From positions 1 to 60,251 of IMG/VR virus record IMGVR_UViG_3300037963_001896: a DNA stretch of 60,251 nucleotides. One strand, given 5' to 3'. Below, in pieces: positions 792 through 26,828 of this stretch. The DNA comes from a virus. Made by a program: the position numbers and the translations under genes. Positions within the stretch are counted from its first letter, which is position 1; every line of letters begins with the position of its first letter. The notes beneath the pieces are model-generated. The model had not been told where the DNA came from. It did no database searches and was given only the letters and a program-made list of their open reading frames with translations.

Positions 792-1808
792 ATGCATTCA
801 ATCAAACCAACCCATCTCAAGTCAGAGATAAAACAAAATATGCAATCGGGCATCAACACCATGATCTGGGGTGGTCCCGGCATCGGTAAGTCAGAGATAC
901 CACAACAAATAGCTGACGAGACCAACAGGACGTTGTTAGATTTCAGGGCCAACTTGTTTGACCCAGTCGACGTCCGAGGTGTGCCGTACGTTGCACAACT
1001 CAAAGAGTCTGTTAAAAGATTTACACGTTGGGCTGTGCCTGATGTGTTTCCAATTGAAGACAGAGACGGTACAGAAGGTATTTTTCTTATTGACGAATTA
1101 CCAACTGCACCCCCAGCAACACAAAACGCATTTCTACAGCTATTGATAACCAGGGAGGTCGGTAACTACAGGTTACCAGACGGATGGTCAATCATTGCTG
1201 CTGGTAATCGTTTAACTGACGCTGCGGCTGTCTATCAAATGCCATCACCTGTTAGAAACAGATTGGCACACTACGAACTCGAAGCCGATCTGGATGATTG
1301 GTGTGAGTGGGCAGTATCCAATGGAGTGGATACGTCCCTTGTGTCGTTCCTACGATACAGACCCAACTTGCTATTCGATTTCAACGCTGAAAACTATGCT
1401 TTTCCAACTCCTCGAAGCTGGTCGTACGTTGACAAACGACTAAAGCTACCGGCCGTGGACGAAGAAACATTGTTCTACGGTGTATCTTCTCTGGTCGGAG
1501 ACGGTCCAGCAGGTGAGTACGTAGCGTTTAGAGAAATATATGAGGCTTTGCCTGATATAGATTATCTAATAGACAATCCGCAATCATACAAGTCAGACGA
1601 TAGTCCGGCTGTGTTGTACGCTCTATCAGGTGCTCTGGCAGCTCGAGCTTGTAACGAAAAGATGGAAAACATCATCAAGGTAATCAAGAAGTTACCTACA
1701 GAGTTCCAAGTTATTGCTGTCAAACAATCATTAATCAAAGATAAATCAGTTATTTCACACGACAGTGTAGATAAGTGGTTATCTGATAACTCAACTGTAA
1801 TTTTATAG
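792..1808 (+). CDS. MoxR-type AAA+ ATPase
   Basis: 338 aa. The Walker A motif GGPGIGKS is at residues 27-34, Walker B IFLIDEL at 97-103, the sensor-1 asparagine at 139 (AAGNR) and candidate arginine fingers near 155-157 (VRNR). The layout is that of MoxR/RavA-like ATPases, which usually act as chaperones with a VWA-domain partner. Here the partner is two genes downstream (2527-3645). Start ATG has GAGGAG upstream. The C-terminal third, after about residue 215, is less conserved and may bind the partner. Role in the phage unknown: metal loading, remodelling of a host complex, or counter-defence are possible. Confidence 0.85.
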   Translation: MHSIKPTHLKSEIKQNMQSGINTMIWGGPGIGKSEIPQQIADETNRTLLDFRANLFDPVDVRGVPYVAQLKESVKRFTRWAVPDVFPIEDRDGTEGIFLIDELPTAPPATQNAFLQLLITREVGNYRLPDGWSIIAAGNRLTDAAAVYQMPSPVRNRLAHYELEADLDDWCEWAVSNGVDTSLVSFLRYRPNLLFDFNAENYAFPTPRSWSYVDKRLKLPAVDEETLFYGVSSLVGDGPAGEYVAFREIYEALPDIDYLIDNPQSYKSDDSPAVLYALSGALAARACNEKMENIIKVIKKLPTEFQVIAVKQSLIKDKSVISHDSVDKWLSDNSTVIL

Positions 1809-1816
1809 GAGGTAAT

Positions 1817-2527
1817 ATGAGTACAGTAAGAATGTCAGAATATCTCAAACGTGACATTGTAAAAAAGTTTGAGGAATCCCACAAAAAGTCCAAACCACAA
1901 ATGGAGTTGGACGTGGCTCGTGGAGATGCAATATACAACGAGTACATTGGATCCAAAATCAGTACTGCAATAGAACAGCTTTCTGAAACCTTTGGCGATA
2001 CAGTCGATGTCGAAGACTTATTTCCAAAGAAAAGCAGTATTGAGGTAACAGTTCCTGTTCATGTAACAAAACTACGATGGGATGGAGAAGAGTACGTCAA
2101 AGAAACAGAATTAGATGAGGACTATAATTTAACTGTTCCTTTATCTACAGAACGTAGAGTTTTCTATGGTTTTAGTAACGACGGCTATTACGGACGTCAA
2201 ATCAAATACAATTTTGACCGTTACGAAAACAAAGACCTTAATTATTTATGCGAAGTTGTAGAGTACAACAGTAAATTAAATTCTATTCGAGATCTTTCAG
2301 CTAGAAAAGTCGAAGAGCTATTAGACAAATTTACAACGCTAAATCAAGCACTTAAAGCATGGCCAGCCTTGTCCAAACTTGTTGAGCCTGAAAAGCTTGC
2401 CAAAGTGCATGAGAAACAACAACGCAAGCGTAAACAAGAACAACAGAAACAAATGGCAGACCAGGTTGTAGTAGATAACGACCTTAACAAAACCATTTTA
2501 TCTGCATCACTCATAGGAGATGAGTAA
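1817..2527 (+). CDS. Unknown protein between MoxR ATPase and VWA protein
   Basis: 236 aa, hydrophilic, with a C-terminal lysine/glutamine-rich helix (residues about 190-215) that is probably coiled coil. Strong ribosome site (AGGAGG) 6-7 bases before the ATG. The stop overlaps the next start (TAATG at 2525-2529), so translation is coupled to the VWA protein. The fixed position between the ATPase and the VWA gene suggests a third subunit or adaptor. No family recognised. Confidence 0.75.
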   Translation: MSTVRMSEYLKRDIVKKFEESHKKSKPQMELDVARGDAIYNEYIGSKISTAIEQLSETFGDTVDVEDLFPKKSSIEVTVPVHVTKLRWDGEEYVKETELDEDYNLTVPLSTERRVFYGFSNDGYYGRQIKYNFDRYENKDLNYLCEVVEYNSKLNSIRDLSARKVEELLDKFTTLNQALKAWPALSKLVEPEKLAKVHEKQQRKRKQEQQKQMADQVVVDNDLNKTILSASLIGDE

Positions 2528-3645
2528 TGAATGAGTATACAAAAGCTAGATCTCAGCTGATTCTTGCTAACCCGTTCTTCGGGACGCTAGCTTTACGCTT
2601 AAAACCCATCGAAGACGAGTCCGTAGGTACTGCAGCAACCAATGGTGAGTACATAAAGTACAACCCAAAATGGTTTCTGAAACTAAGGGATCAGGAACGC
2701 ATTGGCTTAATCGCTCATGAAGTATTGCATGTTGCTCTCATGCATATGCTCAGGAGGAATGAGCGTGATCCACAAAAGTGGAACATTGCTGCAGACTACG
2801 TTATCAATCTTGCACTCAAGAAAAGTAATTTCATACTTCCACATACAGAACTGCTGGATGACCAGTACGACGGTATGTCTACCGAAGAAGTATACAATTT
2901 GCTGCCTGACGACATTATGGACGGCAATGGCCCGTTTAGTGTTTTACTACTAGACGGGGACGATCCCGGTGGATGTGGTGGAGTTATGGACCACCCATCT
3001 ATCGGTGATGGTTCAGCGTCAGGTAAATTCGAAGCAGAAATAGAAATTGCCGTGCAACAAGCAGCAGAAGCTGCTAAAGCAATGGGTAAGTTGCCTGGTC
3101 ATTTACAAACACTTATCGAAAAAGCGTTAGCTCCTAAAGTTGACTGGAAAATGACGTTGGCTCGGTTTCTGCGATCAAATAACAAATCTGATTTTACGTG
3201 GATACGCCCCAACCGCAGATTTATTGCTACTGGTAAGTATTTACCTTCTCTACATACACCCTGCCTGGAAGAGATAGCAGTTGCTGTAGATACTTCTGGT
3301 TCTGTCAGCGATGACGAGCTTGAACAGTTTACTGGCGAGATTACTTCTATCTTGCACGACACCAATCCTGAACGCATACATTTCTTGCAATGCGATACCG
3401 AAGTACGTAACGACGAGGAGTACACACGAGAAAGTTTACCACTCAAAGTTACTTACGAAGGTAGAGGTGGCACTGCTTTTAGACCAGTAATTAATTACAT
3501 CAACGAAACCCATCCTGGAGTATCTGCTCTTGTGTATCTTACCGATTTGGAGTCAAACGATTTCGGAGATCAACCGCATTATCCAGTTCTTTGGGTGTCA
3601 ACACATTTAGAGGAGGCACCTTATGGTGAAATCATCAAGATTTAA
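2527..3645 (+). CDS. VWA-like protein with N-terminal metallopeptidase-like domain
   Basis: 372 aa. The N-terminal part carries a zinc-peptidase-type HEVLH motif at residues 64-68 in the context AHEVLHVALMHMLR. The C-terminal part has a MIDAS-like DTSGSVS at about 253-259, typical of von Willebrand A folds. The combination matches the DUF2201-type metallopeptidase/VWA family, normally partnered with MoxR ATPases. A glycine-rich acidic loop (about 137-165) links the halves. Overlaps the previous gene by 3 bases. Whether the peptidase site is active cannot be told from sequence. Confidence 0.8.
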   Translation: MNEYTKARSQLILANPFFGTLALRLKPIEDESVGTAATNGEYIKYNPKWFLKLRDQERIGLIAHEVLHVALMHMLRRNERDPQKWNIAADYVINLALKKSNFILPHTELLDDQYDGMSTEEVYNLLPDDIMDGNGPFSVLLLDGDDPGGCGGVMDHPSIGDGSASGKFEAEIEIAVQQAAEAAKAMGKLPGHLQTLIEKALAPKVDWKMTLARFLRSNNKSDFTWIRPNRRFIATGKYLPSLHTPCLEEIAVAVDTSGSVSDDELEQFTGEITSILHDTNPERIHFLQCDTEVRNDEEYTRESLPLKVTYEGRGGTAFRPVINYINETHPGVSALVYLTDLESNDFGDQPHYPVLWVSTHLEEAPYGEIIKI

Positions 3646-15263: not shown

Positions 15264-15692
15264 ATGTACGAATATAATTGCACGGTTGAACGAGTTGTTG
15301 ATGGGGACACTATTGATGTTGTTCTCGATCTTGGTTTTTCTGTGCTTTATAAGTCTAGGGTGCGTTTATATGCTATTGATACTCCCGAGTCACGTACTCG
15401 TGACAAAGACGAAAAAGTTCGTGGAAAAATGGCTAGCAAGTTTCTTTCAGATGCTGTTAGCAGTGGTTCTGTCGTTATAAGAACTCAATTAAAAGATTCT
15501 AAAGGTAAGTATGGGCGCGTGTTAGGCACAGTAGTGGTTGACGGCGTTGATATAAACCAGGCTATGTGCGATAACTTCTTAGCTGTGCCATATCACGGAC
15601 AAAACAAAGCTGCAGTAGAAGCTGCACATTTAGTTAATAGAGAAAAACTTATTGAATTAGGGCAGTTCGACCCTGCTACCGTTTCTTCCTAG
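15264..15692 (+). CDS. Thermonuclease (SNase-like)
   Basis: 142 aa with the staphylococcal-nuclease fold: VVDGDTIDV (11-19) supplies the calcium-binding aspartates. Arg34, Glu42 and Arg85 match the catalytic Arg-Glu-Arg triad. No signal peptide, so it acts in the cytoplasm, probably on host or recombination DNA. Last gene of the forward block. Its 3' end overlaps by 17 bases the convergent minus-strand gene. Confidence 0.85.
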   Translation: MYEYNCTVERVVDGDTIDVVLDLGFSVLYKSRVRLYAIDTPESRTRDKDEKVRGKMASKFLSDAVSSGSVVIRTQLKDSKGKYGRVLGTVVVDGVDINQAMCDNFLAVPYHGQNKAAVEAAHLVNREKLIELGQFDPATVSS

Positions 15693-16108: not shown

Positions 16109-17887
16109 TTATTCCATAAATGTGAATACTCTCAAAGGTTTTGCTTTACCTTTTACAGGCATAGGATCCAACTCTTGTAAGTAATAGCCACACAAAGATT
16201 CTGTCCGTTCACCTATAAGTATGTCTTTACCTGCTTCTTTAGTTGCTGACTCCAAGCGTGCACCACAGTTTACTGCATCTCCAATTGCTGTGTAATCGAA
16301 CCGTGATTCGCTGCCCATGTTTCCTATTACCGCTTCACCTGTGTTTACACCGATTCCGATCGCAATAGGGGGAAGTCCTTCAACTTGCAGTTCATTATTC
16401 AACTCTTTCATGTTTTTAACTATATCGTGCGCACAATCACATGCAGCTTTTGCATGACTAGGTATATCTAACGGAGCGTTAAATATAGCCATCATGGCAT
16501 CTCCAATGTACTTATCTACCATCCCACCGTGCTTTTGTACTGCTTCTTGTTGTGCTGTAAGAGCTTTATTCATTACGTACGTTACTTGTTCAGGTTCTAG
16601 CTTTTCAGACATAGAGGTAAAACCCCTAACGTCTGTAAATAAAAACGTAGCTTCTTTCTTTTCACCGCCTAACTTAAGTATATCTGGGTCATCTTGCAGA
16701 CGTTTTACCTGCCTAGGATCTAAGTAATGTTCAAATTGTTTCTTAATCTGCTGGCGAAGGAGTGATTGTTCTCTAAAGTTAAGCCAGAATTGCTGCCCTA
16801 ATATAAGCAACAGTGATATACCACTATAAGTAGTGTCTATTAATAAAGCTTTTTGACTTACAAGATACCACTCAAGTCCAGCTGTACTTACAAGAAGACC
16901 TGCAGCTCCAAGTGCCATGTACGCGTACGTACATTTACGCCCGAGCAGGAGACCCAATGTACACAAAACTAAAAATATAAGTAGCTCGTATACAAGCCTA
17001 TCTGCAGGTATTTGTGGGCTGTTAGGTAATAATAAACTCTCCGCCAGGGCTGCTTGTACGTGATGAGGGTTTAATAGACCGTCGGGCGTGGCTATTTGAG
17101 GCATAACACCAGCTGCTGTAACACCAATAAACACAAACTTTCCTTCTACCTGGGGGTCTTGTAACGTAGTTTTAGGTGTATCCACCCAAGAAATCCACTT
17201 TCTGCCGTATTTATCTGTAGGTATTACACCTAACGCAGGTATCCGAACCGCTTGTATACCACTTTCGTATGTTTTAATCTGATATGTTCCTTCCCCGGTT
17301 AAAACTTTTAGTACTTGTGTAGCAAATGAAGCAACCCAACCCTTGGGAGTTTGTACAATAAGAGGAACTCGTCTAACTAAGTTATCCACATCTGTTGGGG
17401 CTGATACAATACCTTGATAAGCCGCTTCTTCTAGCTGGTTTACGTTAGCTAAATGCCCTGACAATGTAATCATATCTACAGGGTTATCCCCAAGAACTAC
17501 AGTTCCATCAGTAGATGGATAGATTCGGTTTTCATATTCAGGTATTGCCAGTACGTTTGTGCCCTGCTGCAGACTCATTGCGAACTCGGCATCACCACCA
17601 AAACGATCTGCTTGTGGAAACATAATTACCCAACCCACGCCTAACGCTCCACGGTCGAGCAAGTCTGTTTGTATTTCTGCTAATCGCTGTCTTGGAAAAG
17701 GCCAACCGCCTTCTTTACTAATATCATTTTCAGTGATATCTAGTATTACAAAGTGGCCGCTGGGAGTTTGTTCTTGTACAAGTGCATCAAAGGTTTTAAG
17801 GCGAAGTACCTCTAAAGCTTTATAATCAAATATAAGTGGCAGTGATAATACTGCTACTGTAACTGCCCCTATTAACCACTTACTCAT
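16109..17887 (-). CDS. CHASE2-domain adenylate/guanylate cyclase
   Basis: 592 aa inner-membrane receptor-cyclase. N-terminal helix (4-20), periplasmic CHASE2 sensor (about 25-295), three transmembrane helices (about 300-370), then a class III cyclase domain (about 410-592). Catalytic residues are present: metal-binding Asp419 (LFTDVRGF) and Asp463 (YIGDAMMA), purine-recognition Lys459, Thr533 (DYTAIGD), Asn540 and Arg544 (VNCGAR). Lys/Thr at the base-reading sites favour ATP, giving cAMP. The start overlaps the FecR gene stop by 4 bases (ATGA). CHASE2-cyclase/FecR neighbours are known in bacteria; in a phage this is very unusual. Confidence 0.92.
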   Translation of the reverse strand: MSKWLIGAVTVAVLSLPLIFDYKALEVLRLKTFDALVQEQTPSGHFVILDITENDISKEGGWPFPRQRLAEIQTDLLDRGALGVGWVIMFPQADRFGGDAEFAMSLQQGTNVLAIPEYENRIYPSTDGTVVLGDNPVDMITLSGHLANVNQLEEAAYQGIVSAPTDVDNLVRRVPLIVQTPKGWVASFATQVLKVLTGEGTYQIKTYESGIQAVRIPALGVIPTDKYGRKWISWVDTPKTTLQDPQVEGKFVFIGVTAAGVMPQIATPDGLLNPHHVQAALAESLLLPNSPQIPADRLVYELLIFLVLCTLGLLLGRKCTYAYMALGAAGLLVSTAGLEWYLVSQKALLIDTTYSGISLLLILGQQFWLNFREQSLLRQQIKKQFEHYLDPRQVKRLQDDPDILKLGGEKKEATFLFTDVRGFTSMSEKLEPEQVTYVMNKALTAQQEAVQKHGGMVDKYIGDAMMAIFNAPLDIPSHAKAACDCAHDIVKNMKELNNELQVEGLPPIAIGIGVNTGEAVIGNMGSESRFDYTAIGDAVNCGARLESATKEAGKDILIGERTESLCGYYLQELDPMPVKGKAKPLRVFTFME

Positions 17888-18999
17888 CCTGAGTTCTGCT
17901 TAATAGTAATATTTGACCCGCCGCCATTAATAATAATTTGATTAGATTTCCCATCTTGTATAAGTATAACCGTATATCCCTGCGAAATGTTTAAATCCAC
18001 TCGTACTGTCTGACTTACAGATCTTCGCAAACTTAACATTTCTCCCTGGATAATAGTTGTAATTTGCGTTTGGGGGTCTTGTCCTATTTGTGTGCCTCTA
18101 ACTACTGTAGAACTAACATCGCTTTTTAACTCATCATCTTGAAGCACGTCTAGTTCTTCAATTACAGCAAGCAGATCTTCAAGAAAGTTAGTATCTAAAT
18201 AGTTTATATCTAGCTCGGTAAACTCTAAATCAGTTTCATTATCAAGAAAATCTTCGGCAAGAAAGTCTATATCTAAGTCATTAAAGTCCAAATAACTTGC
18301 ATTACTAGAAACAGCGTTCACCGTCTGTGCTTGTACGTCTTCTTCAGGAGGCGTTACAATTAACATGTTATCTATAAGCTCAAGTGTTATATCTAAAATA
18401 ACCGGTTTGCTAGGTGTAGTTTCAAACACACTTACAGTCGTAGCCTGGTAAGGTTTGTTTAACACAACATCGCCCATTGCAGTAGATACAAGTATTTCTC
18501 CTGAAGAAACACCATTAGCATCAGGTAGTAATATTATTAAAGATCTACCTAACTCATCTACGGTGCACGTAAAATCAGTCCCTCGAATTGCAATATTTGC
18601 AGTGGGAGTACGTATACTTATGTTTTCTTTACGGATTGTGTTTATTTTGCCAGATACATAACGGATGGTCCCGCTGGCAAATTGTAAAGCCATCTGTGAT
18701 TTAGATGGATCTGGGTCATAGATGTATTTATCTACAACAAGTTTAGAGTGCTCAGTTAAACGTACAACCGAATCATCTAAAAAACGAAGACCTATACGTC
18801 CATTACTAGTACGTACATCGTCCTGGGACTGTATTCCTAGTTTCAGTTCTGCATCATAAGGTTTATCCCGTATGACTTTGGCAAAACCTGTTAGTTCAGA
18901 TACATTCCCTATATCAACAACTTGTGCTAGTTCCGCCGTCGTTTTGAACGACGCAAACAGTACCGTTGTTGCCAGAAGAAATAATCTTAAGGTAGTCAT
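17884..18999 (-). CDS. Secreted FecR-domain protein with acidic repeats
   Basis: 371 aa. Signal peptide 1-22 (LFLLATTVLFASF core), FecR domain at about 35-180 (with TPTANIAIRGTDF), then two tandem ~21-residue acidic repeats (about 237-278: FNDLDIDFL / FTELDINYL). The C-terminal tail (331-371) is beta-rich and Gln/Asn/Gly-rich (ILIQDGKSNQIIINGGGSN), resembling curlin strands. It is not the anti-sigma form of FecR: no N-terminal cytoplasmic domain and no sigma factor nearby. Likely exported to the periplasm or surface; may be the ligand or partner of the CHASE2 sensor. Its signal peptide is encoded within the 3' end of the curlin-like gene (86-base overlap). Confidence 0.85.
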   Translation of the reverse strand: MTTLRLFLLATTVLFASFKTTAELAQVVDIGNVSELTGFAKVIRDKPYDAELKLGIQSQDDVRTSNGRIGLRFLDDSVVRLTEHSKLVVDKYIYDPDPSKSQMALQFASGTIRYVSGKINTIRKENISIRTPTANIAIRGTDFTCTVDELGRSLIILLPDANGVSSGEILVSTAMGDVVLNKPYQATTVSVFETTPSKPVILDITLELIDNMLIVTPPEEDVQAQTVNAVSSNASYLDFNDLDIDFLAEDFLDNETDLEFTELDINYLDTNFLEDLLAVIEELDVLQDDELKSDVSSTVVRGTQIGQDPQTQITTIIQGEMLSLRRSVSQTVRVDLNISQGYTVILIQDGKSNQIIINGGGSNITIKQNSG

Positions 19000-19639
19000 T
19001 ATCCAATGTGCTTTGCTGCTCTATGTTAAACGTCCTGCTATTACCTGTTTGATCTAAGTAAAAATAACCACCCGCATAACCATCTGCATCAAAAGTAAGA
19101 GTGTTGCTGTCACCATCAACATCAACATAATTTGTTGCTCCGTCATAATCAATGTCTATAGTAAATGTGTTGCTGTCACCTTGAATGATCCAATCTAGAT
19201 CTAAACCGCTAGCTAACGCATTAGTGCCCTGGTCAAAAGTAAATGTGTTACTTGACCCTGTTACATCAACATTCCAATTGGAATTATCAATACCGTAGGT
19301 ATTTGTAGGATCACCTTGAAAAGTAAAGGTGTTACTGTCGCCATCGAATTCAAAAAACCCTGTAAGTGAGTCTCCCCAAATATCACCCAAGAATTTATTG
19401 CTGTCTCCAATTTGATTTATATCTAGAGTTAAACTAGTGCCGTCTAAATCTAAAGGAGTAAGTGTGCCTGCAATCGAATTCAGTCCTCCTATAATATTCC
19501 CTGATCCTAATTGCTCTAAGTCTATATTAGCTGTCGCTCCTGACTGATCTATATAAATCTCGTTATCCGCTGCAAACGTAACCAAAGGAAATAACAGAAA
19601 GATACTAAGAAGAAGGCTCTTGCTCTTGTTCTTTTTCAT
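18914..19639 (-). CDS. Curlin-repeat (CsgA-like) secreted protein
   Basis: 241 aa: signal peptide 1-23 (cleavage near TFA-AD), then about seven imperfect repeats of the type G-D/S-SNTFTFD (IYIDQSGATANI, LDINQIGDSNKF, FEFDGDSNTFTFQG, VDVTGSSNTFTFD, IIQGDSNTFTID, VDVDGDSNTLTFD, LDQTGNSRTFNIE). Spacing of about 20-25 residues and Gln/Asn/Ser ladders fit the curlin beta-strand-loop-strand fold, here more acidic than E. coli CsgA. It ends with two cysteines (GTVCVVQ...TSC). Ribosome site GGAG. Directly after csgG, overlapping it by 35 bases; the obvious substrate of that pore. Confidence 0.75.
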   Translation of the reverse strand: MKKNKSKSLLLSIFLLFPLVTFAADNEIYIDQSGATANIDLEQLGSGNIIGGLNSIAGTLTPLDLDGTSLTLDINQIGDSNKFLGDIWGDSLTGFFEFDGDSNTFTFQGDPTNTYGIDNSNWNVDVTGSSNTFTFDQGTNALASGLDLDWIIQGDSNTFTIDIDYDGATNYVDVDGDSNTLTFDADGYAGGYFYLDQTGNSRTFNIEQQSTLDNDYLKIISSGNNGTVCVVQNDGGTSTSC

Positions 19640-20450
19640 CTTCTAATCTCCAAAAACCAGCGTTTTCACCCTCCTTGATTACTTCTAATACCGCTGTTTC
19701 GATAGCTGCACGTAATGCTAAATTTATAGATTCATTGCGTACTCTACCACTCTCAATTTCAACCAACTCAGTTCCTGTTGATATGAACCTAAAGACATCT
19801 TGACTTACCGAAGCACTTAAAATAGTCTTTGTAACCAAGACATCCAGTAATACTTTACCTGTAGCCACGGAAACAACGCGGAGGGAAACGGACACGGTGT
19901 CACGCCGATATTCTTTTGAGCCGCCAATCCCTAAATGACGTGCTCCTGCGCCTCCAGATTCAATATTACTCTCATATCCTACCACACCACCTTCTATTAT
20001 CAAACCAGCGAACAAAAGTGCGGGTAGTTTGTTCTTCTCATCAAACTCTTGGCGTGTGCTACGAATAAGCTGACGTTCTTTAGTAACGTGGTCTAAACCA
20101 ACCCGTTCGACAACTTCAAAAAATCCATTTTCGTTTGTTCCAGCGTGTTTAAGAGCGCGAATTAAATACACATACGGAGCTTGAGTAACTGCAGTAGAAA
20201 ATGTAGCAAACGAGCTGTTGCTTCTACGCTGACCTGTATCGTCCTTAAAACCATCTGCATACACAGCGACTACTGGTTTCTTTGTAGTTGCACTGCGCAC
20301 ATTCGCTAACTCAGTAAGAACAATTTGTTCGACTTGGGCTTCTTCTATGCGTTCAATTGGCCCTATGTTGTTTTCAATAGGGTCAAATAGTAACGCACAG
20401 CTAGAAAGTAAAGGAACCAATAGGAAGGGTAATTTCTGTAGTATTCCCAT
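19605..20450 (-). CDS. csgG: CsgG-type outer-membrane curli secretion pore
   Basis: 281 aa from ATG 20450, chosen because it gives a lipoprotein signal with lipobox LSSC (lipidated Cys18). An upstream in-frame start at 20486 would bury this signal. The body matches E. coli CsgG along most of its length: VAVYADGFKDDTGQ, FSTAVTQA, VVERVGL...ERQLIR, GGVVGYESN, GGAGARHLGIG, VSLRVVSVATGKVL, VTKTILS, VFRFI, AIETAV. The constriction loop between DTGQ and FSTAV is one residue longer than in E. coli, keeps the Phe, and lacks Tyr and Asn at the expected places. It should form a nonameric outer-membrane channel. Overlaps csgF by 50 bases. Confidence 0.93.
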   Translation of the reverse strand: MGILQKLPFLLVPLLSSCALLFDPIENNIGPIERIEEAQVEQIVLTELANVRSATTKKPVVAVYADGFKDDTGQRRSNSSFATFSTAVTQAPYVYLIRALKHAGTNENGFFEVVERVGLDHVTKERQLIRSTRQEFDEKNKLPALLFAGLIIEGGVVGYESNIESGGAGARHLGIGGSKEYRRDTVSVSLRVVSVATGKVLLDVLVTKTILSASVSQDVFRFISTGTELVEIESGRVRNESINLALRAAIETAVLEVIKEGENAGFWRLEDEKEQEQEPSS

Positions 20451-20940
20451 CAGCGTCTGTAATTTTAAGTGTGATATAGTCTCCATCTACTGAGTACTCA
20501 ATTGTGTTACCCATCAATTCTAACACACCGCTTTCGCTTGGCGTTTCTCCAAACAATTGTTCTACTAACTGCCTAGATAATTGAGCGTAGATTCTAGACT
20601 CTAAATTTCTAATAAATCTTGCAAGAGTAGTGTTTTCTTTCTCTCTTTCAAGTTCTTCTCGATAAGCTTTAATTTCTTCTTTAATCGCTTTTTTACGATT
20701 AAATTCTTGGTTTTCTATTGTGAGGTAGTGACTAGAAGTGCCTATGCCACTAAAAGAAGGGTTCTTAAACTTGTGCACCATTTCATCAGCGTTGAGCTGC
20801 GATGCAAAAATACCACCTAATAAAAAGATTCCAATAGCACAGATGATGTATAGAAGTCTTTGCTTATCCGCTTCTCTTTTCCTAAAAGCTAGTTCAGCGT
20901 TGCTGGGCCTTCCTCGCTTTTTAGTCTTTACGTTGGTCAT
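20401..20940 (-). CDS. csgF: CsgF-like curli assembly factor with atypical N-terminus
   Basis: 179 aa. From residue 52 it aligns with E. coli CsgF: MVHKFKNPSFSG corresponds to the pore-binding N-terminal peptide (FQFRNPNFGG), then a helical middle (ARFIRNLESRIYAQLSRQL) and a C-terminal beta part (YSVDGDYITLKITDADGNTTEI). Unlike E. coli CsgF it has ~28 basic residues, including KKRGRPSNAEL (AT-hook-like), before a hydrophobic segment (29-46). A signal-peptidase site at LNA-DE is possible. It overlaps the preceding gene by 20 bases and csgG by 50. Confidence 0.88.
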   Translation of the reverse strand: MTNVKTKKRGRPSNAELAFRKREADKQRLLYIICAIGIFLLGGIFASQLNADEMVHKFKNPSFSGIGTSSHYLTIENQEFNRKKAIKEEIKAYREELEREKENTTLARFIRNLESRIYAQLSRQLVEQLFGETPSESGVLELMGNTIEYSVDGDYITLKITDADGNTTEITLPIGSFTF

Positions 20941-21271
20941 CTCTATCTGCTTTTGCTATTTTATCTGTATCTATTAAGTTAGGTACTCCTAAAATTGTTT
21001 TAATCATCGTGTCCTGACGTATGATTTCGTTGTCAAGACTACGAACTCTATCTATCAAGGCTACCAGTATACCGTGCTGTGAGTCAAGTTTTGTGCCAAG
21101 ACGTTGTTCCATCTGCTCTATCTGTTGAGCTACTTTATCGTCTACAACGTCTAGTTTTGACTCCATTCCATCTACAATCCGTATCACTAACTTGTAGATA
21201 AACCAGCCTAGACCACCGGCCGCAGCTATAGGGAAGCCAACTTCGTTAATAAACTTAATGGCTTCTTCCAT
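20921..21271 (-). CDS. Membrane-anchored coiled-coil protein (holin-like)
   Basis: 116 aa: one transmembrane helix at about 10-32 (VGFPIAAAGGLGWFIYKLVIRIV), then a long coiled coil (35-95). Small phage proteins of this build are often listed as holin-like. It sits between the tail genes and the curli module, so it may be part of either. Ends by overlapping csgF. Confidence 0.65.
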   Translation of the reverse strand: MEEAIKFINEVGFPIAAAGGLGWFIYKLVIRIVDGMESKLDVVDDKVAQQIEQMEQRLGTKLDSQHGILVALIDRVRSLDNEIIRQDTMIKTILGVPNLIDTDKIAKADRDDQRKD

Positions 21272-25942: not shown

Positions 25943-26353
25943 TCACCCCTCCAAAACTAAATCTTTTAGTCGGGTGCTCCTCGGTCCTACTTGTACAGCC
26001 CACTTTGAATCTAACATCTCAACGCCAGCTGTCTCCCAGTCTCCTGCCTCCATGGCAGCTAAAAAGTTTTTGAACCCCATAAGCCTAGATAGACCTAAGT
26101 TGAAGCACATATTTACCATAACACGCTGTCTAGTGTCAGATAAATCTACAAACCAAGGGAAAGCGTTAGTAAGTTCTTCTATACAAATGTCAATGTCATT
26201 ACTTAATAAATAATCAGACTCGTCATCTGTAATGCCGCGATCGTCCAAATTTCTGCCCACGCCAATTGTATTTTTGCCTGCGCTGCATTGGTACAGAGTA
26301 AGAACTACCCCTTCGTCACGTTTTAACTCTTCGATTAACTGCTCTCTATTCAT
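25943..26353 (-). CDS. Endolysin, GH24 lysozyme of the Glu-Cys-Thr type
   Basis: 136 aa from ATG 26353 (overlaps the holin stop by 8 bases; longer in-frame starts are unnecessary). The catalytic E-8-D-5-T signature of T4 lysozyme is present as Glu14, Cys23, Thr29 (RDEGVVLTLYQCSAGKNTIG). Cys in place of Asp occurs in other phage lysozymes and is compatible with activity. No signal peptide or SAR helix, so it needs the holin next door for release. Cleaves peptidoglycan at lysis. Confidence 0.9.
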   Translation of the reverse strand: MNREQLIEELKRDEGVVLTLYQCSAGKNTIGVGRNLDDRGITDDESDYLLSNDIDICIEELTNAFPWFVDLSDTRQRVMVNMCFNLGLSRLMGFKNFLAAMEAGDWETAGVEMLDSKWAVQVGPRSTRLKDLVLEG

Positions 26354-26828
26354 TATCTTTACCGCCCCCATGAGACGCACCAAAGTAAAAAGATATAACA
26401 GCAGACGCTAAACCACCTAAATATCCCAAAACAAGGTTAATTAGAGCTTCGCTGTTTTGCTCTGGCGGTTGTAGGGTTACTAAAAATATATACCCAAGAA
26501 AACCGCCTAACGTAGCAATACCCATAATACGGGTAGTCCAATCTTTAGAAAATTTACTTCTAGCATCTTGTATATCTTTAGTTTCTAAAGCAAATACATC
26601 TACTTCTAACTCGGCCATTTGCAATTCAAAAGCTTGTTCAGCTTTTTTAAGTTCTAGCATTTGTTCAGGTGTTGCAGCTTGAACTGCTTTTTGAATAGCT
26701 TTTGGGTTGTCATCGCACCCTAAAACACTTGCAATTGTTTTTGCAGCCATACCGCCCATAGGACCACCTAGTGCAGTCCCTAATGTAGGAGCTACTGCCC
26801 CTACAAGATTTTTTAATAATGCTTTCAC
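26346..26828 (-). CDS. Holin of the 3-TM GTA type
   Basis: 160 aa. Glycine/alanine-rich hydrophobic N-terminus (6-35), a helical soluble middle (45-85), two membrane helices (about 94-113 and 123-145) and a short tail. This matches the GTA_holin_3TM family. Overlaps the endolysin gene, a normal lysis cassette arrangement. Confidence 0.8.
   Translation of the reverse strand: MKALLKNLVGAVAPTLGTALGGPMGGMAAKTIASVLGCDDNPKAIQKAVQAATPEQMLELKKAEQAFELQMAELEVDVFALETKDIQDARSKFSKDWTTRIMGIATLGGFLGYIFLVTLQPPEQNSEALINLVLGYLGGLASAVISFYFGASHGGGKDNE

What the first reader, a model, noticed from the sequence alone, without database searches (positions are those of the whole stretch)
16109..17887. Intact CHASE2 adenylate/guanylate cyclase in a phage
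All core catalytic residues are in place (Asp419, Asp463, Lys459, Thr533, Asn540, Arg544). A full-length membrane receptor cyclase is large cargo for a phage, so it should be under selection. It could raise host cAMP (metabolism, surface control), or interfere with cyclic-nucleotide-based antiphage defence; both are speculation.
Basis: partly seen in the sequence, partly recalled or inferred. Interest (0 to 1): 0.75.

Follow-up and report, generated by a model that had tools for sequence, protein, structure and literature searches.

The report
Phage curli module with cyclase sensor
The phage carries an intact membrane enzyme predicted to make the signalling molecule cAMP, but it is the last gene of an already described phage cassette for exporting curli-like fibres, in which a neighbouring protein with a fibre-like tail may tell the enzyme about the state of the fibre.

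Summary
Window 16109-17887, minus strand, encodes an intact 592-aa CHASE2/class III cyclase with all six named catalytic residues; four are invariant, N540 varies once and T533 is T/S/D (74/8/1) in 83 phage sequences. It is under purifying selection. K459/T533 predict ATP as substrate.

It is not stand-alone cargo. It ends a six-gene cassette: small membrane/coiled-coil protein, CsgF, CsgG, curlin-like protein, FecR-domain protein, cyclase. That cassette is published for pelagiphages (PMC9599517) and annotated in HTVC008M and Melnitz.

New here: (a) a KPP25-related podovirus backbone, apparently a third phage lineage; (b) phage FecR proteins end in a curlin-like tail seen in 0 of 26 bacterial FecR tested; (c) CsgG-selected loci with room keep FecR in 55 of 55 but the cyclase in 42 of 46.

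Best reading: FecR relays the state of fibre or pore to the CHASE2 cyclase, as an outer-membrane protein does for rhizobial CHASE2 cyclases, and host CRP-type proteins read the cAMP. Identity of most parts is near certain; the relay is inference. No effector gene was found in the phage; anti-defence use has no support.

The parts
16109..17887 (-). CHASE2 adenylate cyclase, 592 aa: hydrophobic segment about 2-20, predicted periplasmic CHASE2 domain, hydrophobic segments about 298-316 and (weaker) 325-343 and 347-365, conserved QFEHYLDPRQ linker, class III cyclase domain 410-584
17884..18999 (-). FecR-domain protein, 371 aa: signal-like helix 2-18, FecR domain about 30-200, low-confidence acidic linker 214-296, C-terminal curlin-like beta domain about 300-371; 4-nt overlap with the cyclase start
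18914..19639 (-). curlin-like repeat protein, 241 aa, signal-like N-terminus, all-beta model (pLDDT 83.5, pTM 0.79) that I read as a beta-solenoid; family profile matches PDB 8c50, a curlin-repeat protein, at E 7.1e-4
19605..20486 (-). CsgG outer-membrane secretion channel homologue with a lipobox-like LSSC (by eye); the ATG at 20450 may be the true start
20401..20940 (-). CsgF homologue, with an unusual basic N-terminal extension (KKRGRPSNAEL...) before the hydrophobic segment
20921..21271 (-). 116-aa protein, one N-terminal hydrophobic segment plus likely coiled coil (by eye and weak Pfam), conserved directly upstream of CsgF; weak holin PHROG match; probably what PMC9599517 called a histidine kinase (not verified)

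Best explanation
The gene encodes a homodimeric class III (K/T type) adenylate cyclase in the inner membrane with a periplasmic CHASE2 sensor. It is made, probably late in infection, together with a phage-borne curli export system: CsgG pore, CsgF cap and a curlin-like fibre subunit. The FecR-domain protein encoded just before it is exported; through its C-terminal curlin-like tail it associates with the fibre or the CsgG/CsgF pore, and through its FecR domain it touches CHASE2. The state of the fibre is so relayed across the periplasm, and the cyclase makes cAMP, which host CRP-family proteins read (change of motility, surface or metabolism). Shown by sequence: identity and order of most parts, intact catalytic residues, purifying selection, the conserved FecR tail, co-occurrence. 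Inferred: substrate (from K459/T533), late timing (from gene position), topology and export, FecR-CHASE2 contact, tail-fibre contact, direction of the signal, host effector.
For: Pfam CHASE2, Guanylate_cyc, FecR, CsgG and CsgF hits. Among cyclase-selected loci with enough sequence upstream, the gene is in the locus for FecR 43 of 43, curlin 34 of 35, CsgG 31 of 31, CsgF 27 of 27. Among 75 new CsgG-selected loci (5 of the 80 returned were already held and left out), those with room have CsgF 64 of 64, curlin 64 of 64, FecR 55 of 55, cyclase 42 of 46. Among 78 new FecR-selected loci (2 of 80 already held), those with room have the cyclase 69 of 69 and CsgG and curlin 46 of 46. Phage FecR tail [ILV]x[ILV]xQx(1-4)-end: 51 of 51, 78 of 78 (the query contained the tail), 55 of 56 (the exception has M for I/L/V), against 0 of 26 bacterial FecR and 38 of 3944 other phage ORFs. 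AlphaFold (mean pLDDT 71.0, pTM 0.52) gives a separate beta domain at about 300-371 with strands every ~10 residues, pLDDT about 80. The FecR domain matches the PupR cell-surface signalling domain: Foldseek E 1.1e-3, Z 16.0, rmsd 2.6, 137 residues. FecR lies in 26 of 80 bacterial CHASE2-cyclase loci, within 300 nt of the cyclase ORF in 18 by my count, with no csg gene in any of the 80. Published precedents, passages seen: outer-membrane protein NsrA acts through CHASE2 cyclases (PMC7529298, PMC13001267); CyaD1 without CHASE2 makes cAMP constitutively (PMC5498481); a FecR-domain outer-membrane protein clusters with most CHASE2 cyclases of Campylobacterota (PMC9239204). dN/dS 0.02-0.25.
Against: Four of 46 CsgG-selected loci keep FecR with its tail but show no cyclase downstream, so FecR is not there for the cyclase alone. 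In L047, L068 and L072 the cyclase is on the other strand. The tail pattern was written after seeing the sequences; the stricter pattern used first fits only 11 of 51; curlins themselves fit the end pattern in only 22 of 68; a profile of curlin C-termini finds FecR tails only at E about 0.01 or worse (window FecR E 5.3). Fold searches matched only the FecR domain; the tail was not searched alone. No effector was found in 20 virus records, several of them fragments. The S. meliloti FecR-domain gene smc02177 was not required for signal perception (PMC5498481). The Melnitz authors saw no clumping of infected cells (PMC9004378). I saw no activity data for any phage member.
Confidence: 0.42

Rival explanations
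1. FecR is structural: its FecR domain and tail anchor or nucleate the fibre at CsgG/CsgF. The cyclase is an add-on that answers another periplasmic cue or fires constitutively to shift host metabolism, motility or surface.
For: FecR 55 of 55 but cyclase 42 of 46 in CsgG-selected loci with room; cyclase on the opposite strand in L047, L068 and L072.
Against: FecR genes also lie in 26 of 80 bacterial CHASE2-cyclase loci that have no csg gene, and FecR-CHASE2 linkage is reported for histidine kinases and cyclases (PMC5192318, PMC9239204, passages), which argues for a FecR-CHASE2 partnership.
Confidence: 0.27
2. The CsgG/CsgF pore works in lysis timing or as a gated channel (Melnitz hypothesis); the cyclase reports envelope state to time lysis.
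For: Pore and lysis idea proposed in PMC9004378 (passages). A lysozyme gene is at 25943-26383 on the same strand; genes that look like lysozymes by eye (no search run) follow the cassette in L430 and L436; the 116-aa protein has a weak holin PHROG match (E 0.00029).
Against: A curlin-like gene is present in every CsgG-selected locus with room (64 of 64), which the pore-only reading does not need. Those authors reported no csgA/csgB, although the GenBank record of Melnitz annotates two curlin-associated repeat proteins.
Confidence: 0.1
3. Signal interference with cyclic-nucleotide antiphage defence (Pycsar, CBASS), or a Pycsar-like system of the phage.
For: PADLOC PycC models match the catalytic domain (best E 4.2e-29).
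Against: Three ordinary bacterial CHASE2 cyclases match the same model at E 1.3e-31, 1.1e-29 and 7.4e-28; no cNMP-binding partner in the window; the neighbours are curli genes.
Confidence: 0.04
4. A passenger without function, or an inactive receptor.
For: No activity data for a phage member in the papers seen.
Against: Catalytic residues conserved and dN/dS 0.02-0.25; PMC9599517 reports expression of viral curli and FecR genes in metatranscriptomes (passage).
Confidence: 0.03

Closest known systems
Type VIII secretion (curli) module of pelagiphages (PMC9599517, PMC7029224) and its copies in Pelagibacter phage HTVC008M and Methylophilales phage Melnitz
   Same: csgF, csgG, curlin, FecR, (second curlin), cyclase in the same order; phage cyclases are one side of a branch against 45 bacterial rows, SH-aLRT 99.
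   Different: Window cyclase is 35.5% identical to that of HTVC008M and 31.6% to that of Melnitz, the second curlin gene is missing, and the backbone is KPP25-related, not T4-like and not HTVC027P-like.
NsrA with CHASE2 cyclases CyaD1/CyaD2/CyaK and Clr of Sinorhizobium meliloti (PMC7529298, PMC13001267, PMC5498481)
   Same: CHASE2 cyclase fed by an envelope protein; Rhizobium relatives L099, L115 and L119 carry a FecR-domain ORF directly beside the cyclase.
   Different: The rhizobial system is reported to sense a plant ribosomal protein and uses the regulator Clr; the phage has a FecR protein with a curlin-like tail plus CsgG/CsgF, and no cNMP-binding protein was found in it.
FecR/LysM plus CHASE2 histidine kinase 'BiofilmReg' operon of Burkholderia (PMC5192318)
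   Same: Periplasmic FecR-domain protein next to a CHASE2 receptor; linked to biofilm (passages).
   Different: Output is a two-component kinase, not a cyclase; no curli genes in the passages seen.
Solved structures: class III cyclases such as 3r5g (CyaB), CsgG 3x2r, curlin-repeat protein 8c50, PupR signalling domain 6ovk
   Same: Sequence or fold matches.
   Different: All 45 sequence matches of the cyclase lie within residues 380-592, none in CHASE2; the phage FecR has no room for an N-terminal anti-sigma domain.

Membership tests
Class III adenylate cyclase (K/T, bacterial type) | two metal Asp, base-specifying Lys plus Asp/Thr, transition-state Asn and Arg in one catalytic domain (feature list recalled) | tested here: met
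   D419, D463, K459, T533, N540, R544; counts of 83; PF00211 E 9e-22
Class III adenylate cyclase (K/T, bacterial type) | makes cAMP from ATP | not testable with these tools
   needs an assay
CHASE2 receptor | CHASE2 domain between a first and further membrane segments | tested here: met
   PF05226 residues 13-314, E 3.7e-32; hydropathy peaks 2-20 (1.79), 298-316 (2.43) and, weaker, 325-343 (1.38) and 347-365 (1.37)
Curli / type VIII secretion | CsgG channel and CsgF | tested here: met
   PF03783 E 8.8e-45, PF10614 E 2.2e-18; CsgG to PDB 3x2r E 1.8e-41
Curli / type VIII secretion | secreted curlin subunit (CsgA/CsgB repeats) | tested here: inconclusive
   no Pfam curlin hit at E 0.1, weak CsgB NCBIfam hit E 0.0064, family profile to 8c50 E 7.1e-4 with no stretch passing on its own, all-beta model; no significant Foldseek match
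Curli / type VIII secretion | CsgE gate and CsgD regulator of the enterobacterial operon | tested here: not met
   no such Pfam hit in the 40 window ORFs scanned, cassette and neighbours included; their absence from the phage modules is also stated in PMC9599517
FecR anti-sigma regulator (FecIR type) | cytoplasmic anti-sigma domain before a membrane segment (recalled) | tested here: not met
   the protein begins with a signal-like helix 2-18 and the FecR fold starts about residue 30
FecR-CHASE2 signalling pair | FecR-domain envelope protein encoded beside a CHASE2 receptor | tested here: met
   4-nt overlap in the window; FecR in 43 of 43 cyclase loci with room
FecR-CHASE2 signalling pair | FecR protein controls the receptor | not testable with these tools
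   needs genetics
Pycsar defence | pyrimidine cyclase paired with a cyclic-nucleotide-binding TM or TIR effector (recalled) | tested here: not met
   PF00027 absent from the window; PycC match unspecific
HTVC023P-type pelagiphage | shared core genes with HTVC027P | tested here: not met
   of 13 window proteins only TerL (33%), PolA (22.6% over 425 aa) and one other (26%) match HTVC027P bases 1-30000; no capsid or portal match
Kochitakasuvirus (KPP25) relatives | shared capsid, terminase and polymerase | tested here: met
   MCP 54%, TerL 40%, PolA 33% to KPP25; relatedness only, not genus membership

The most novel reading that the evidence does not exclude
Phages have built a new kind of trans-envelope relay in which an extracellular curli-like fibre is itself the signal: a FecR protein carrying a curlin repeat domain is docked into the phage-made fibre or its pore and reports assembly or contact to a CHASE2 cyclase, so an infected cell makes cAMP in response to a fibre that only the virus encodes.
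Probability: 0.27. Interest if true: 0.78.

Novelty: new member of a known kind. Interest (0 to 1): 0.45.

Why it matters
Its function is unknown. The FecR tail offers a candidate physical link between the fibre half and the signalling half of the cassette, and turns the question of what phage curli do into a few gene deletions and a cAMP assay. It also questions two published labels: by architecture this FecR is not an anti-sigma iron regulator, and the 'histidine kinase' before csgF is probably a short membrane/coiled-coil protein.

Tried and rejected
Pycsar/defence reading: rejected after the control with bacterial CHASE2 cyclases. Phage-encoded effector: PF00027 in 0 of 20 virus records, against 13 matches in the one bacterial genome added and 10 of 14 named control genomes. 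Bacterial source of the whole cassette: none found. Five alphaproteobacterial curli loci (genomes over the CsgF cut-off, 5 of 385) show no FecR or CHASE2 cyclase in 19 kb (0 of 5), and 0 of 80 bacterial CHASE2-cyclase loci have csg genes (flanks up to 8 kb, some contigs shorter); PMC9599517 nevertheless infers an alphaproteobacterial origin and a similar organisation there. No alphaproteobacterial FecR match printed passes profile position 251 of 369 (list truncated). Backbone of relatives: window capsid in 0 of 29 cyclase-bearing records, without a positive control; window terminase in 1 of 27 other records, at 33%; window capsid in 2 of 21 FecR-module contigs with the window as positive control; window cyclase in 0 of 21 capsid-bearing contigs. 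These contigs are short, so absence says little. Foldseek with the curlin model gave no significant match. The first cyclase tree used partial bacterial rows and was replaced. Promoter scan: below the shuffle mean; terminator-like sites 8 against 3.9; not used. Host of the phage: not determined. Library searches that met no paper on the FecR tail: and the word search in PMC9599517.

Full report
Observation. The ORF is real and intact: 592 aa on the minus strand, 16109-17887. Pfam recognises CHASE2 and the class III catalytic domain, and the solved sequences it matches are nucleotide cyclases, all within residues 380-592 (45 distinct sequences). In 83 phage sequences D419, K459, D463 and R544 never vary, N540 varies once, and T533 is T/S/D in 74/8/1. 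The Lys/Thr pair is typical of ATP-using bacterial cyclases (recalled), and all six residues sit in one chain, so a homodimer would be complete. Nei-Gojobori dN/dS is 0.02-0.25 in the 40 closest pairs printed of 138 computed.

Surroundings. The cyclase start overlaps the stop of a FecR-domain gene by 4 nt; upstream on the same strand lie a curlin-like gene, csgG, csgF and a 116-aa membrane/coiled-coil gene, then tail chaperone and tail fibre genes. The long ORFs from about 57.9 down to 16.1 kb all read leftward and include terminase, portal, capsid, tail fibre and lysozyme genes, so the cassette sits at the 3' end of what should be the late region; no expression data were seen for this virus.

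The cassette is known. HTVC008M and Melnitz have csgF, csgG, curlin, FecR, a second curlin and the cyclase in the same order (in HTVC008M the FecR and second curlin are annotated as hypothetical and were identified by profile). PMC9599517 (passages) describes it in HTVC023P-type podophages and pelagimyophages, FecR and cyclase included, suggests import, superinfection exclusion, sibling capture or recombination as uses, and reports expression of viral curli and FecR genes in metatranscriptomes. PMC7029224 (passages) and PMC9004378 (passages) describe csgF/csgG and propose sibling capture and a lysis pore. In my library search only PMC9599517 holds FecR, CsgG and phage together.

How constant it is. 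In cyclase-selected loci (80 IMG/VR, window, two named phages), those with enough upstream sequence have FecR 43 of 43, curlin 34 of 35, CsgG 31 of 31, CsgF 27 of 27 somewhere in the locus. To avoid selecting on the cyclase I selected on CsgG: of 75 new loci (five of the 80 returned were already held), those with room have CsgF 64 of 64, curlin 64 of 64, FecR 55 of 55 and cyclase 42 of 46. The four without it (L398, L409, L430, L436) keep FecR; in L430 and L436 genes that look like lysozymes by eye follow. The constant core is thus CsgF-CsgG-curlin-FecR, and the cyclase is a frequent but not universal member, as PMC9599517 also says. In L047, L068 and L072 the cyclase lies on the opposite strand from the csg genes.

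The FecR protein. It starts with a signal-like helix, not an anti-sigma domain; no signal-peptide program was run. Its FecR domain matches the PupR cell-surface signalling domain (Foldseek E 1.1e-3; Z 16.0, rmsd 2.6, 137 residues). After a low-confidence acidic linker comes a C-terminal domain predicted as beta strands every ~10 residues (pLDDT about 80; whole model 71.0, pTM 0.52), ending in [ILV]x[ILV]xQ. That end is in 51 of 51, 78 of 78 and 55 of 56 full-length phage FecR proteins; the three sets share some contigs, and the second was searched with the tail in the query. It is in 0 of 26 bacterial FecR found near CHASE2 cyclases and in 38 of 3944 other phage ORFs. QxGxx[NST]x[AVILT], a curlin-type core (recalled motif, loosened), is in the last 60 residues of 29 of 51 phage FecR, 1 of 26 bacterial FecR and 27 of 3944 other phage ORFs, and anywhere in 66 of 68 curlins. 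Against this: the end pattern was chosen after inspection, the first stricter pattern fits 11 of 51, curlins themselves fit the end pattern in only 22 of 68, and a profile of curlin ends ranks FecR tails first among non-curlin proteins but only at E about 0.01 or worse (window 5.3). I regard the tail as a likely curlin-type repeat, not a proven one.

Bacterial relatives. Of 80 bacterial CHASE2-cyclase loci 26 contain a FecR ORF, 18 of these within 300 nt of the cyclase ORF by my count, and none a csg gene. Five alphaproteobacterial curli loci have no FecR or cyclase in 19 kb. The phage cassette thus looks like a junction of two bacterial units: curli export, and an envelope FecR-CHASE2 receptor pair. 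Phage cyclases are one side of a branch (SH-aLRT 99, 37 phage and 45 bacterial rows, quick unrooted tree); in the gappier first tree they lie nearest alphaproteobacterial rows, agreeing with PMC9599517.

Mechanism. In S. meliloti the outer-membrane protein NsrA feeds CHASE2 cyclases CyaK and CyaD1/D2, whose cAMP acts through Clr (PMC7529298, PMC13001267, passages); a CyaD1 without CHASE2 makes cAMP constitutively (PMC5498481, passage); in Campylobacterota most CHASE2 cyclases cluster with a FecR-domain outer-membrane protein (PMC9239204, passage). By analogy the phage FecR is the link to CHASE2 and its tail the link to the fibre or pore. Against it, PMC5498481 found a FecR-domain gene near cyaD1 not required for signal perception, and phage FecR persists without the cyclase. 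The output should be a host protein: no PF00027 domain in the window or in 19 other virus records, several of them fragments.

Phage lineage. Capsid (54%), terminase (40%) and polymerase (33%) relate the virus to Pseudomonas phage KPP25, and terminase (53%) to Aeromonas phage phiA008. HTVC027P, an HTVC023P-type phage, shares only terminase at 33% and two weak matches (bases 1-30000 compared). Two further contigs carry both an 84%-identical capsid and the FecR module (2 of 21 tested). So what appears to be a third phage lineage carries the cassette, in at least three records.

Verdict. An intact, selected, predicted adenylate cyclase, ordinary in being part of a published viral curli cassette; new in its phage background and in the FecR tail that suggests how the cassette's two halves connect.

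Noticed in passing
window 20921-21271: 116-aa membrane/coiled-coil protein; relatives occur in one or two copies before csgF in many phage modules (two in e.g. L014, L025, L043); probably the 'histidine kinase' of PMC9599517 but too short for a kinase, with a weak holin PHROG match.
   Followed up: partly
window 18914-18999: The curlin and FecR ORFs overlap by 86 nt, so curlin C-terminus and FecR N-terminus share DNA; a similar overlap is in L022 (83 nt) but not in HTVC008M.
   Followed up: no
window 20401-20940: CsgF has a basic N-terminal extension with an AT-hook-like KKRGRP before its hydrophobic segment; whether this start codon is used is unknown.
   Followed up: no
window 15264-15692: Staphylococcal-nuclease-like gene beside the cyclase on the other strand; a homologue is in 12 of 35 loci with CsgF (window included), upstream of the cassette in 7 and beyond the cyclase in 5.
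   Followed up: partly
window 792-3645: AAA ATPase (MoxR-like, below Pfam cut-offs) and DUF2201 metallopeptidase/VWA protein in the early region.
   Followed up: no
L398, L409, L430, L436: Curli modules with FecR but no cyclase in the downstream sequence held.
   Followed up: partly
L047, L068, L072: Cyclase on the opposite strand from the csg genes, so not co-transcribed.
   Followed up: no
L011 (IMGVR_UViG_3300037991_007421): A 4.8-kb contig 100% identical to cyclase residues 255-592, apparently the same or a very close virus in another record.
   Followed up: no
L002 6182-6901 and 7960-8976 (Melnitz): The GenBank record annotates two curlin-associated repeat proteins although the Melnitz paper reports no csgA/csgB.
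   Followed up: yes
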